Source: Flavobacteria bacterium BAL38 (GTDB lineage: Bacteria; Bacteroidota; Bacteroidia; Flavobacteriales; Flavobacteriaceae). From it: a DNA stretch of 64,000 nt. The stretch's first letter is position 1. Each line of letters begins with the position of its first letter. The notes under the pieces were generated by a model that worked only from the letters and a program-made list of their open reading frames with translations, was not told the origin of the DNA and did not search any database. The stretch covers positions 744,001 through 808,000 of the forward strand of contig AAXX01000001.1 of assembly GCA_000169355.1 (NCBI GenBank). The letters run 5' to 3'. This document shows positions 1 to 2,106 of the stretch, one piece after another. The translations under genes and the position numbers were made by a program.

Positions 1-2106
1 TTCTTCACGAAGTAATTTTGCATAAGTAACTTTTGTATCGGGTTGTAATAAATTGGTCGCCACAGTTACCGCACGAGAAGCATCGTTAACATGAACCACC
101 GTTTCTTTATATTCTGGAGCAATTTTCACAGCAGTATGCGCACGCGAAGTTGTAGCACCGCCAATCATTACGGGGATTTTGATATTCAATTTATCCATTT
201 CTTTGGCCAAATACACCATTTCATCCAACGAAGGCGTAATCAAACCACTCAAACCGATAATATCTACGTTTTCTTTAATAGCTGTTTCAATAATTTTTTC
301 TGGTGGAACCATCACACCTAAATCAATAATTTCGAAATTATTACAGGCCAAAACTACTGAAACAATATTTTTACCAATATCATGCACATCGCCTTTTACA
401 GTCGCCATAAGAATCTTACCAGCCCCCCCCGCCCCCGAAGGGGTAGCTACTGAAATTGCGGATAATTCCCTACTTATAGATTCAACTGTGCTAAATAAAT
501 CCTTTAATACTTGATTATTTGAATATCGTTTAACTATAAAACCGTTCTGTTCTAACCATTCTGTTCTTAATTTATCGCGTTCAATTTGTTCTTTCAAATT
601 ATGAATTGAACCATCAACTTCAATAACTAGTTTTTTTTCCAAACAAACAAAGTCCACAATATATTCACCAATAATATGTTGTCTCCTAAATTTATAACCA
701 TCCAATCCTTTATTCGATAAAACATTCCAAAGCAATTTTTCTGCCTCAGTTGGTTTATTTCTCATTTCTTTTGCTTTCTCTTTTAAAGCTTTATAAAGCA
801 TCGGACTTGCGGTATTCCACGATTGCTTTTTAGCTCCCCCTTCGGGGGTTGGGGGGCTAATATAAGGAAGGAGATAAGCCACCGCTTTTTTCATTACACG
901 CGCCGATTTTACTACTTGTGGCAAGAACATTTTTCCTGAACCAAACAAATCACCCACCACATTCATTCCGGCCATCAAATTGATTTCGATAACTTCGATT
1001 GGTTTTTTAGCTAACTGACGTGCTTCTTCAATATCAATTTCGATAAATTCGTCGATTCCTTTTACTAACGAATGCGTTAATCGCTCTTGAACCGAACCAT
1101 TTCGCCATTCGGCAATCGCTTTTTCATTTGATTTTACATCACCTTTGAAGCTTTCGGCTAAATCTAGCAAACGTTCTGTAGCATCTTCTCTTCTATTTAA
1201 CAAAACATCTTCGACATGTTCCAACAAAACAGGATCAATTTCGTCATAAATTTCCAACATTTCAGGATTCACAATTCCCATTGTCATTCCGTTTTGGATG
1301 GCATGGTACAAGAACGCCGAATGCATGGCTTCCCTAACTTTATCGTTTCCACGGAAAGAAAAAGACACGTTACTCACGCCACCAGAAATATTCGCATACG
1401 GAAGATTTTCTCGAATCCATTTGGTTGCTCGGAAGAAATCTAACGCATTTAATTTATGCTCTTCCATTCCGGTAGCCACTGGGAAAATATTGGGGTCGAA
1501 AATGATATCTTCAGCAGGAAAACCAACTTGGTTAACTAAAATATCGTAACTTCTTTTACAGATTTCGATACGTCTTTCATACGTATCCGCTTGACCATTT
1601 TCGTCAAAAGCCATTACGATTACTGCAGCTCCATATCGTTTGATTAATTTGGCATGATGAATAAAAGTAGCTTCTCCTTCTTTTAGAGAAATTGAATTCA
1701 CAACTCCTTTCCCTTGAATCACTTTTAAACCCGCTTCAATAATTTCCCATTTTGAAGAATCAATCATAACAGGAACTCGGGCAATATCGGGTTCGGCTGC
1801 GATTAGATTTAGGAACTTAGTCATGGCATAAACACCGTCCAACATTCCTTCATCCATGTTGACATCGATGATTTGCGCACCACCTTCTACTTGTTCACGC
1901 GCAACCGAAAGCGCTTCATTGTATTTTTCTTCTTTAATTAATCGAAGAAATTTTCTAGAACCTGTAACGTTTGTTCGTTCTCCAACATTAACAAAATTGG
2001 TTTCTGGAGTTACAATCAAAGGTTCCAAACCTGATAATTTAAGCCCCCTAACCCCCGAAGGGGGAACTGAAACTGAGAGATTTTTATTTATATTTGATTC
2101 TGACAT
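1..2106 (-). CDS. metH: Methionine synthase, pterin/cap/B12-binding polypeptide, with in-frame DUF559 insertion (partial at left edge)
   Basis: This is the second half of a split cobalamin-dependent methionine synthase, which transfers methyl from methyltetrahydrofolate through cobalamin to homocysteine. The frame is open from ATG at 2106 to the window edge (702 codons seen). It shows a pterin-binding domain (about 25-285, with NVGERTNVTGSRKF and GGAQIIDVNMDEG), a cap domain (about 310-416) and a B12-binding domain with D573-x-H575-x-x-G578. Residues 417-562 are foreign to the family: they encode a DUF559 nuclease-like domain bounded by G/C-rich inverted repeats, placed in the linker before the B12 domain. 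Residues near 18-28 (VPPSGVRGL) come from a solo copy of the same palindrome. No stop codon or frameshift interrupts the gene. It lies 20 nt after the homocysteine-methyltransferase half and shares its SAM-I-controlled transcript. The activation domain, if present, is outside the window. Confidence 0.95.
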   Translation of the reverse strand, partial: MSESNINKNLSVSVPPSGVRGLKLSGLEPLIVTPETNFVNVGERTNVTGSRKFLRLIKEEKYNEALSVAREQVEGGAQIIDVNMDEGMLDGVYAMTKFLNLIAAEPDIARVPVMIDSSKWEIIEAGLKVIQGKGVVNSISLKEGEATFIHHAKLIKRYGAAVIVMAFDENGQADTYERRIEICKRSYDILVNQVGFPAEDIIFDPNIFPVATGMEEHKLNALDFFRATKWIRENLPYANISGGVSNVSFSFRGNDKVREAMHSAFLYHAIQNGMTMGIVNPEMLEIYDEIDPVLLEHVEDVLLNRREDATERLLDLAESFKGDVKSNEKAIAEWRNGSVQERLTHSLVKGIDEFIEIDIEEARQLAKKPIEVIEINLMAGMNVVGDLFGSGKMFLPQVVKSARVMKKAVAYLLPYISPPTPEGGAKKQSWNTASPMLYKALKEKAKEMRNKPTEAEKLLWNVLSNKGLDGYKFRRQHIIGEYIVDFVCLEKKLVIEVDGSIHNLKEQIERDKLRTEWLEQNGFIVKRYSNNQVLKDLFSTVESISRELSAISVATPSGAGGAGKILMATVKGDVHDIGKNIVSVVLACNNFEIIDLGVMVPPEKIIETAIKENVDIIGLSGLITPSLDEMVYLAKEMDKLNIKIPVMIGGATTSRAHTAVKIAPEYKETVVHVNDASRAVTVATNLLQPDTKVTYAKLLREE
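421..448 (-). repeat. Right (3') inverted repeat of the DUF559 element
   Basis: In the coding direction it reads AGCTACCCCTTCGGGG followed by a run of G ending in GCT. It is translated in frame as VATPSGAGGA and is followed at once by the GKIL that normally precedes the B12-binding motif. It is an inverted copy of 832-858, with a few differences in the outer G tract. Confidence 0.85.
832..858 (-). repeat. Left (5') inverted repeat of the DUF559 element
   Basis: In the coding direction it reads AGCCCCCCAACCCCCG then AAGGGGGAGCT, translated as SPPTPEGGA. The inner CCCCC and GGGGG flank a short loop and form a hairpin. It joins the cap-domain sequence VAYLLPYI to the DUF559 domain. Confidence 0.85.
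2041..2073 (-). repeat. Solo palindrome related to the right end of the DUF559 element
   Basis: In the coding direction it reads TTTCAGTTCCCCCTTCGG, then GGGTTAGGGGGCTT. The TTTCAGT outside the hairpin is also found beside the right repeat of the DUF559 element (449-455), so this looks like a copy of that end alone. It is in frame and adds about a dozen residues (SVSVPPSGVRGL) before the family sequence KLSGLEPLIVTPE. Confidence 0.8.

What the first reader, a model, noticed from the sequence alone, without database searches (positions are those of the whole stretch)
421..858. A palindrome-bounded DUF559 nuclease element inserted exactly in frame inside methionine synthase
The metH frame contains a foreign segment of exactly 146 codons between the cap domain (VAYLLPYI) and the B12 domain (GKILMATVKGDVHDIG). 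Its two ends are 28-bp inverted repeats with CCCCC-TTCG-GGGGG hairpins, and its interior is a DUF559 (Vsr-like) domain with D485, E496 and D498 present. There are no intein motifs and no stop codons, so the host enzyme seems to be made with a nuclease domain embedded in a linker. This resembles a homing element that survives by staying in frame at a tolerant domain boundary, instead of by splicing. That Vsr-like/DUF559 proteins are nuclease-related is established; mobility and tolerance are inference.
Basis: partly seen in the sequence, partly recalled or inferred. Interest (0 to 1): 0.93.

Follow-up and report, generated by a model that had tools for sequence, protein, structure and literature searches.

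The report
Palindrome-ended nuclease nested inside enzymes
In this bacterium a small domain of a DNA-cutting (nuclease) family, bounded by two inverted palindromes, is encoded in one unbroken frame inside methionine synthase, and relatives of it lie in frame inside many other enzymes of related bacteria, so it is likely a mobile element that would persist by being translated as a tolerated extra domain instead of being spliced out.

Summary
Confirmed and widened. The metH frame holds a 438-bp (146-codon) segment at 421-858: inverted 27-28 bp REP-like palindromes around a DUF559 domain. It is not a one-off. Of 74 full-length DUF559 copies in the genus, 43 lie in frames over 260 aa; 40 read into host protein on both sides, one is frame-shifted. 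Inverted-repeat score is >=30 in 50 of 74 against 2 of 780 control placements. The pattern recurs across Bacteroidota, with single examples in a cyanobacterium and an alphaproteobacterium. Nineteen host kinds include MetH, LeuRS, IleRS, MetRS, RecG, UvrA and restriction enzymes. Palindrome families follow DUF559 clades; in the three families tested, palindromes follow the cognate nuclease. RAYT loci lack them. Close relatives have empty sites. In IleRS a nuclease-less palindrome pair and a full element occupy one linker in different bacteria. Close nuclease pairs show purifying selection; the fold resembles homing endonuclease I-Bth0305I. The palindromes read as Pro/Gly linkers, predicted disordered. 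Best reading: an autonomous in-frame element, likely spread by a Vsr-like nuclease cutting at its cognate palindrome. Cleavage, homing and the fused protein are untested; no general co-conversion was seen. Ten full-text searches listed no description.

The parts
1..2106 (-). metH second half (pterin-binding, cap and B12 domains; gene cut by the window start), host frame of the element
   Evidence: whole open frame 1043 aa
421..858 (-). in-frame element, 438 bp / 146 codons, from palindrome to palindrome; takes the place of the linker EASKDGSTSSSA of close relatives
832..858 (-). palindromic end at the coding 5' side, AGCCCCCCAACCCCCGAAGGGGGAGCT, read as SPPTPEGGA
421..448 (+). palindromic end at the coding 3' side (inverted copy), read in the metH frame as ATPSGAGGA
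463..786 (-). DUF559 (PF04480) Vsr-like nuclease domain, 124 bits; E456, D485, E496, D498, H502, D511 conserved
2042..2068 (+). lone copy of the same palindrome in the 5' part of metH, in frame (read as PPSGVRGL), no nuclease

Best explanation
The segment is a DUF559 nuclease-family reading frame between two inverted copies of a REP-like palindrome, in frame inside methionine synthase, and it is likely the autonomous member of a mobile palindrome family whose nuclease would cut at its cognate palindromes, so that repair would copy the element into empty alleles or other palindromes. Shown by sequence: the architecture, its recurrence, the match of palindrome family to nuclease clade, palindrome presence that follows the cognate nuclease (families A, C, D), empty sites, patchy occupancy, purifying selection in close nuclease pairs, and nuclease-less palindrome pairs of the same build. 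Inferred: the element is translated as part of the host enzyme; its palindromes work twice, as DNA recognised by the nuclease and as Pro/Gly-rich peptide linkers (predicted disordered) that let host and nuclease fold apart. It would thus hold an essential gene as inteins do, but in tolerant linkers and without splicing. Free-standing copies of the same kind, such as this genome's second DUF559 gene, would be the intergenic form. Untested: cleavage, its site, and the repair route.
For: Inverted palindromes bound DUF559: score >=30 in 50 of 74 genus copies (25 of 43 embedded, 25 of 31 free) vs 2 of 780 control placements; 28 of 40 in a phylum set picked by me vs 7 of 400; 39 of 80 named loci vs 6 of 800. 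Palindrome family follows the nuclease tree: 10 changes vs 43.9 shuffled, 0 of 200 as low. Presence follows the cognate nuclease: A palindromes in 15 of 16 genomes with an A nuclease vs 24 of 105 without (p 6e-8), D 16 of 17 vs 13 of 104 (p 3e-11), C 7 of 7 vs 7 of 114 (p 5e-8); reversed-pattern controls 0; B and E not tested. Of 30 Y1_Tnp loci none has A-E palindromes on both sides. Empty sites: metH in G012 and G115; leuS in 24 of 30 loci read; this genome's second element sits where two cistrons almost abut in G067 and G115. Occupancy of the metH site: 11 of 42, 7 changes, at least 5 forced. IleRS: palindrome pair in 6 of 30 genus loci, full element at the same linker in L382 and L388. Hosts by Pfam. 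Selection: the 12 pairs over 80% identical that were printed have dN/dS 0.06-0.25. Fold and profile: I-Bth0305I, Vsr. Linkers at 418-431 and 552-561 have pLDDT under 50.
Against: No cleavage, binding or mobility is observed. A general co-conversion gradient is absent over 10 close pairs; the signal near the window's own element (9 of 18 informative sites within 60 bp vs 32 of 233 elsewhere, p 6e-4) rests on a window picked after seeing the data. Occupancy of the metH site is more clustered on the host tree than chance (10 of 500 shuffles as low), elements cluster by host gene (30 changes vs 110 shuffled), and a single metH-site clade of nucleases is not rejected (AU p 0.25), so part of the spread may be vertical. 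One embedded copy (L044, G112) has its host frame shifted at the left palindrome, real or by assembly. The domain has no added DNA-binding module, unlike the homing enzymes described in PMC3943268 (passages). 24 of 105 genomes carry A palindromes without an A nuclease; after removing each element's own ends only 8 of 17 D genomes have further copies. Family consensuses were typed from the same loci, so the 70 of 74 two-sided matches, and the labels, are partly circular; the five recG copies get mixed labels. Over all 585 pairs with dS 0.05-1.2 the median dN/dS is 0.60, most being distant, saturated pairs.
Confidence: 0.66

Rival explanations
1. A domesticated domain fusion: DUF559 was captured once per host family and kept because it helps the host enzyme, for example as a nuclease of restriction enzymes or helicases, and the palindromes are incidental.
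For: Many hosts act on DNA: HsdR, HsdM, type ISP and IIG enzymes, RecG, UvrA, UvrD-like. Nucleases cluster by host. Purifying selection in close pairs.
Against: MetH, three aminoacyl-tRNA synthetases, an epimerase, an aminotransferase and an adenine deaminase have no evident use for a nuclease; occupancy is patchy among close relatives; copies are bounded by cognate palindromes; one LeuRS carries two elements (L070), and one LeuRS copy has lost its palindromes and an otherwise invariant His while the frame stayed open (L093).
Confidence: 0.12
2. Passive palindromes: REP-like palindromes are moved by another machinery, such as a RAYT, and DUF559 is a passenger trapped between two of them, like Rickettsia palindromic elements that land in frame.
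For: Many palindromes stand alone or in pairs without DUF559; some genomes hold palindromes without the cognate nuclease; Y1_Tnp genes are common in the genus (87 of 121 genomes).
Against: Of 30 Y1_Tnp loci none has A-E palindromes on both sides (three on one side), and 13 have an inverted repeat of their own of other sequence; palindrome family tracks DUF559 clade and presence; close nuclease pairs are under purifying selection, which a passenger would not be.
Confidence: 0.14
3. The element is removed after transcription or skipped in translation: an unrecognised intein, intron or ribosomal bypass, so the mature MetH lacks the nuclease.
For: GC-rich hairpins at both ends; bypassed hairpin elements are known in yeast mitochondria (recalled, no call).
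Against: No Hint or intein family, no group I or II intron in Rfam; ends read as Pro/Gly-rich peptide in one frame with the host; sites are variable linkers, where removal is not needed.
Confidence: 0.06

Closest known systems
REP / RAYT (TnpA-REP) systems and REPINs
   Same: Short GC-rich palindromes in several to many copies, also in inverted pairs, flanking a nuclease gene and co-varying with it.
   Different: The enzyme is DUF559 (Vsr-like), not a Y1 HUH transposase; 30 Y1_Tnp loci of the same genus lack these palindromes on both sides; elements sit in frame inside essential genes.
EDxHD / Vsr-like homing endonucleases (I-Bth0305I)
   Same: Fold and profile of the catalytic domain; empty and occupied alleles; a DUF559 gene has been assigned to EDxHD before (PMC9403480, passage seen).
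   Different: No intron or intein around it; bounded by palindromes; no added DNA-binding module; placed in tolerant linkers.
Rickettsia palindromic elements
   Same: Palindromic elements inserted in frame into unrelated protein genes (PMC10969869, passage seen).
   Different: About 150 bp, described there without a nuclease; here an autonomous member and nuclease-less pairs coexist.
Inteins
   Same: A nuclease in frame inside essential enzymes; patchy occupancy.
   Different: No splicing domain found; sits in variable linkers, whereas inteins favour conserved motifs (recalled); the host is likely made with the insert.
Vsr mismatch endonuclease
   Same: Fold (1vsr, 1cw0).
   Different: Sequence family, context and palindrome partnership; no link to mismatch repair was tested.

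Membership tests
RAYT/REP system | Y1 (HUH) transposase gene between inverted REPs | tested here: not met
   the enzyme is PF04480; 30 PF01797 loci have no A-E palindromes on both sides (two of the 30 are cut by contig ends and were not placed exactly)
RAYT/REP system | palindromes in inverted pairs and in several copies, cognate to the enzyme | tested here: met
Homing endonuclease gene (EDxHD / Vsr-like) | catalytic domain fold and residues | tested here: met
   3R3P profile E 7e-7, Foldseek E 1.7e-4; conserved E, D, E-x-D, H, D
Homing endonuclease gene (EDxHD / Vsr-like) | occupied and empty alleles at one site | tested here: met
Homing endonuclease gene (EDxHD / Vsr-like) | co-conversion of flanks | tested here: inconclusive
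   local signal at the window's element, window chosen afterwards; no general gradient over 10 close pairs
Homing endonuclease gene (EDxHD / Vsr-like) | cleaves the empty allele | not testable with these tools
   needs a cleavage assay
Intein | splicing (Hint) domain and junction residues | tested here: not met
   no Hint family in Pfam; element ends ...SGAGGA before G, no terminal HN (junction rule recalled)
Group I / II intron | intron RNA structure | tested here: not met
   Rfam at gathering thresholds finds only two SAM riboswitches in the window
Rickettsia palindromic element | in-frame palindromic insertion into unrelated protein genes | tested here: met
Rickettsia palindromic element | short element without enzyme, in Rickettsia | tested here: not met
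   438 bp with a nuclease-family domain, in Flavobacterium and other Bacteroidota

The most novel reading that the evidence does not exclude
A previously undescribed class of mobile element, spread through Bacteroidota and present in at least some Cyanobacteriota and Alphaproteobacteria: Vsr-like DUF559 nucleases are the missing mobilisers of a large class of bacterial REP palindromes, and their palindromes have become dual-use, nuclease target as DNA and flexible Pro/Gly linker as protein, so that the elements live translated and unspliced inside essential enzymes such as MetH and three aminoacyl-tRNA synthetases.
Probability: 0.55. Interest if true: 0.93.

Novelty: categorically new. Interest (0 to 1): 0.88.

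Why it matters
It would add a third way for selfish nucleases to hold essential genes, beside introns and inteins: stay translated, in a linker, with ends that double as peptide. It would give a mobiliser to palindromes that no RAYT explains, a role to DUF559, and a natural set of insertion sites that essential enzymes tolerate. It also warns annotators that DUF559 fusions in MetH, LeuRS, IleRS and others are likely insertions, not new domain functions.

Tried and rejected
Intein and intron readings. RAYT as the mobiliser. Co-conversion as a general signature: not seen over 10 close pairs, kept only as a weak local note. A jump from the first to the second metH site: suggested by the tree, not forced (AU p 0.25). 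The AU rejection of L055+L058 (p 3e-5) is not used, since these two lie at different metH sites. Target-site duplication: extra AT-rich sequence flanks the second element of this genome, but no clear duplication was read (only G067 and G115 of four relatives with a strong match, G067, G115, G012 and G032, were parsed by the pattern used). Phage origin: 5 of 50,697 phage records match, all under 60% identity, two annotated as homing endonuclease. Single-strand folding of the type A ends is only mildly better than shuffles (z -0.9 to -1.8), E likewise (-1.0); B and D are clearer (-3.4, -3.2), C between (-2.2). Six-frame stop-freeness is not special to embedded families: D is free in all six frames too, and the T variant of A is open in 4 of 6. 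In-frame landing is not the rule for lone A palindromes: 5 of 30 loci read lie in long frames, two of them known metH elements. A first boundary choice cut off right-hand palindromes (28 of 80 at score 30); it was corrected (39 of 80). Searches stopped part-way on script errors; the question was answered with longer loci, that.

Full report
Observation. The second metH frame (1-2106, minus strand) is open through 421-858. That stretch is 438 bp and carries DUF559 (E 7e-35) between inverted palindromes at 832-858 and 421-448. The palindrome core occurs three times in the window against a mean of 0.01 in shuffles. A lone third copy lies in the 5' part of metH (2042-2068), in frame. The genome has eight such cores, counted with up to one mismatch; the reversed control has none.

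Not a one-off. PF04480 was sought in 121 genomes of the genus (62 with a match). I fetched 78 of the listed rows: the 74 with at least 78 bits and four weaker ones; the remaining rows, under 38 bits, were left. The best inverted-repeat score between the two flanks is 30 or more in 50 of 74 full-length copies and in 2 of 780 same-length placements elsewhere in the same loci: 25 of 43 in long frames, 25 of 31 in short ones. The four weak, distant domains score 21-22. By eye the ends fall into families A-E with one plan, a hairpin beside a C-run; relative to the gene, the C-run lies outside in A, B and E and inside in C and D. This genome's second DUF559 gene has its own, different pair.

Hosts. 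43 of the 74 lie in frames over 260 aa: MetH at two sites, LeuRS at two, a UvrD-like helicase, RecG and type ISP enzymes (Pfam of representatives). Of these 43, 40 read into host protein on both sides; two (L073, L076) begin at a contig end, and one (L044) has its upstream host frame shifted. A phylum-wide search found PF04480 in 109 of 198 genomes. I fetched 40 of its places, 20 picked for long frames and 20 others, mostly short, so not a random set: 28 of 40 reach score 30 against 7 of 400 controls. A scan of named genomes with a metH-type alignment kept the best 80 loci of more than 500: 39 of 80 against 6 of 800, and 67 of 80 in frames over 260 aa (biased by the query). By that length rule 130 of 194 copies are embedded; the two later sets were not checked one by one for both junctions. 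Pfam supports 19 host kinds: MetH, LeuRS, IleRS (Pfam gives class I synthetase with DUF5915; IleRS by its motifs), MetRS, UvrD-like, RecG, UvrA, CinA, HsdR, HsdM, type ISP, type IIG, an N6/N4 methylase, an MmeI-like methylase, an aldehyde dehydrogenase-MaoC fusion, a DegT aminotransferase, UDP-GlcNAc 2-epimerase, adenine deaminase and an M23 peptidase; the last five and the two methylases rest on one locus each. A search of 5.8 billion proteins with the nuclease region, limited to proteins of 0.55-1.75 times the query length, gave 2330 matches among 2644 candidates; the 120 listed are nearly all MetH fusions, with three synthetases.

Palindrome and nuclease belong together. On a tree of 74 nucleases the palindrome label changes 10 times against 43.9 for shuffled labels (labels come from consensuses typed from these loci, and the five recG copies get mixed labels). 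Genomes with an A nuclease hold A palindromes in 15 of 16 cases, others in 24 of 105; D: 16 of 17 and 13 of 104. After removing two ends per element, 13 of 16 (A) and 8 of 17 (D) still have further copies. For C, with the seven nucleases of the strict C clade, 7 of 7 and 7 of 114. Non-matching family pairs are weaker, though some reach p 0.005-0.02. B and E were not tested. In the same genus 30 Y1_Tnp loci, the best of one genome each out of 87 with a match, include none with A-E on both sides at score 24 and three on one side; 13 have an inverted repeat of their own of score 30 or more (two loci cut by contig ends were not placed exactly).

Empty sites and movement. 109 of 121 genomes gave a metH match. 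Two near relatives, G012 and G115, have VAYLLPYI-EASKDGSTSSSA-GKVLMATV; the window has VAYLLPYI-element-GKILMATV. As the linker is missing from the occupied gene, simple excision could not give the empty form, so gain is the easier direction. On a host tree of 42 metH genes (28 of the 30 best loci and the fetched occupied ones), 11 occupied at this site, occupancy changes 7 times, at least 5 forced; shuffled labels need 9.9 and 10 of 500 are as low, so there is some clustering. Of 30 leuS loci read, 6 are occupied and 24 have a 25-43 residue stretch there. In IleRS, 6 of 30 genus loci carry an in-frame palindrome pair without nuclease in place of a linker, and two named loci of other Bacteroidota (L382, L388) hold a full element at the same place. 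Nucleases cluster by host gene (30 changes against 110 shuffled), which fits allele-to-allele spread with occasional new hosts, and also partly vertical descent. Synonymous codons are more alike in the element than in host flanks for close pairs (0.73 against about 0.60; the difference is about 0.05 in more distant pairs), but with no gradient towards the element. At the window's own element, 9 of 18 informative sites within 60 bp pair it with occupied G032 against 32 of 233 elsewhere (p 6e-4, window chosen afterwards).

The nuclease is kept. Among the pairs printed, the 12 over 80% identical have dN/dS 0.06-0.25; over all 585 pairs with dS 0.05-1.2 the median is 0.60, most being distant and saturated. 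E, D, E, H, D are invariant in 90 chosen sequences. One LeuRS copy has lost both palindromes and altered conserved residues while its frame stayed open, as expected of a dead element in an essential gene.

Fold. AlphaFold2 on 90 sequences gives mean pLDDT 86.7. Foldseek and profile search agree: 3HRL, then I-Bth0305I (3R3P); Vsr follows in Foldseek. A model of the window's MetH (mean pLDDT 78.4, pTM 0.62) shows the nuclease as a folded unit with pLDDT under 50 at 418-431 and 552-561, which cover the residues read from the palindromes.

Beyond Bacteroidota. A Pseudanabaena plasmid has the element in frame in a giant coding sequence (score 96) and a Sphingomonas plasmid has one between sufB and sufC (score 53); an Azospirillum copy has none. 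These are 3 of 39 plasmid records with a match.

Literature. Ten full-text searches list no paper that links DUF559 to palindromes or to in-frame insertion, as far as titles, abstract beginnings and a few passages show; searches list only part of their hits. Of the 14 papers holding DUF559 I saw titles and abstract beginnings, and passages of PMC9403480, which assigns a DUF559 gene to the EDxHD homing family. Passages only were seen of PMC3733652, PMC6006769, PMC12306157, PMC10969869 and PMC3943268. The library holds open-licence papers only, so a description elsewhere is possible. The paper on I-Bth0305I itself is not held.

Mechanism. Shown: architecture, recurrence, cognate pairing, empty sites, selection, fold match. 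Inferred: translation as a fusion, recognition of the palindrome by the nuclease, spread by cut and repair. The cognate pairing makes the palindrome the likeliest target; the alternative, that the nuclease cuts the empty host site as classical homing enzymes do, fits the host-specific clades and is not excluded. I rate a mobile element of its own kind at about 0.8 and the cut-at-palindrome route at about 0.55. The class is marked categorically new because the known kinds tested (RAYT/REP, intein, intron, Rickettsia palindromes) each fail a defining feature, and homing proper could not be tested, though each part resembles something known.

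Noticed in passing
window 3200-3308, minus strand: SAM (S-box) riboswitch, Rfam RF00162, 78 bits, just upstream of the metH pair of genes.
   Followed up: no
window 10085-10145, plus strand: SAM-II riboswitch, RF01726, 69 bits.
   Followed up: no
L002 / L097 (G000:C14:344938-345252): Second DUF559 gene of this genome, free-standing between two cistrons that nearly abut in two relatives, bounded by a different inverted palindrome.
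   Followed up: partly
L005 / L401 (G000:C14, about 1047440): In-frame palindrome pair without nuclease in IleRS of the same genome, in place of a linker.
   Followed up: yes
L070 (G016:C58): One LeuRS frame with two DUF559 elements at two sites.
   Followed up: partly
L093 / L291 (G044:C50): LeuRS copy whose element has lost its palindromes and altered conserved residues (FRQQH to FTPQH, GGIH to GGIL against L043) but keeps the frame: a decayed element.
   Followed up: partly
L044 (G112:C1, about 4729500): Second-site metH element whose upstream host frame is shifted at the left palindrome, in a one-contig genome; real or an assembly slip in a C run.
   Followed up: partly
G101: L143 and L073: One metagenome-assembled genome holds both an empty metH contig and an occupied one that begins inside the element; strain mixture or real polymorphism.
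   Followed up: no
G073:C1:1810115-1813656 and G046:C94: Dense arrays of type D palindromes around a DUF559 gene.
   Followed up: no
L431 (Pseudanabaena galeata plasmid), L433 (Sphingomonas parapaucimobilis plasmid): DUF559 bounded by inverted palindromes outside Bacteroidota: in frame in a giant coding sequence, and between sufB and sufC. L432 (Azospirillum) shows none. No control placements were run for these three.
   Followed up: partly
G089:C2:99489-99806 and G028:C45:20902-21222: Weak Y1_Tnp matches inside open frames of 1210 and 839 aa.
   Followed up: no
L326: A contig labelled Candidatus Nitrotoga carries a Flavobacterium-like MetH with the element; likely a binning error.
   Followed up: no
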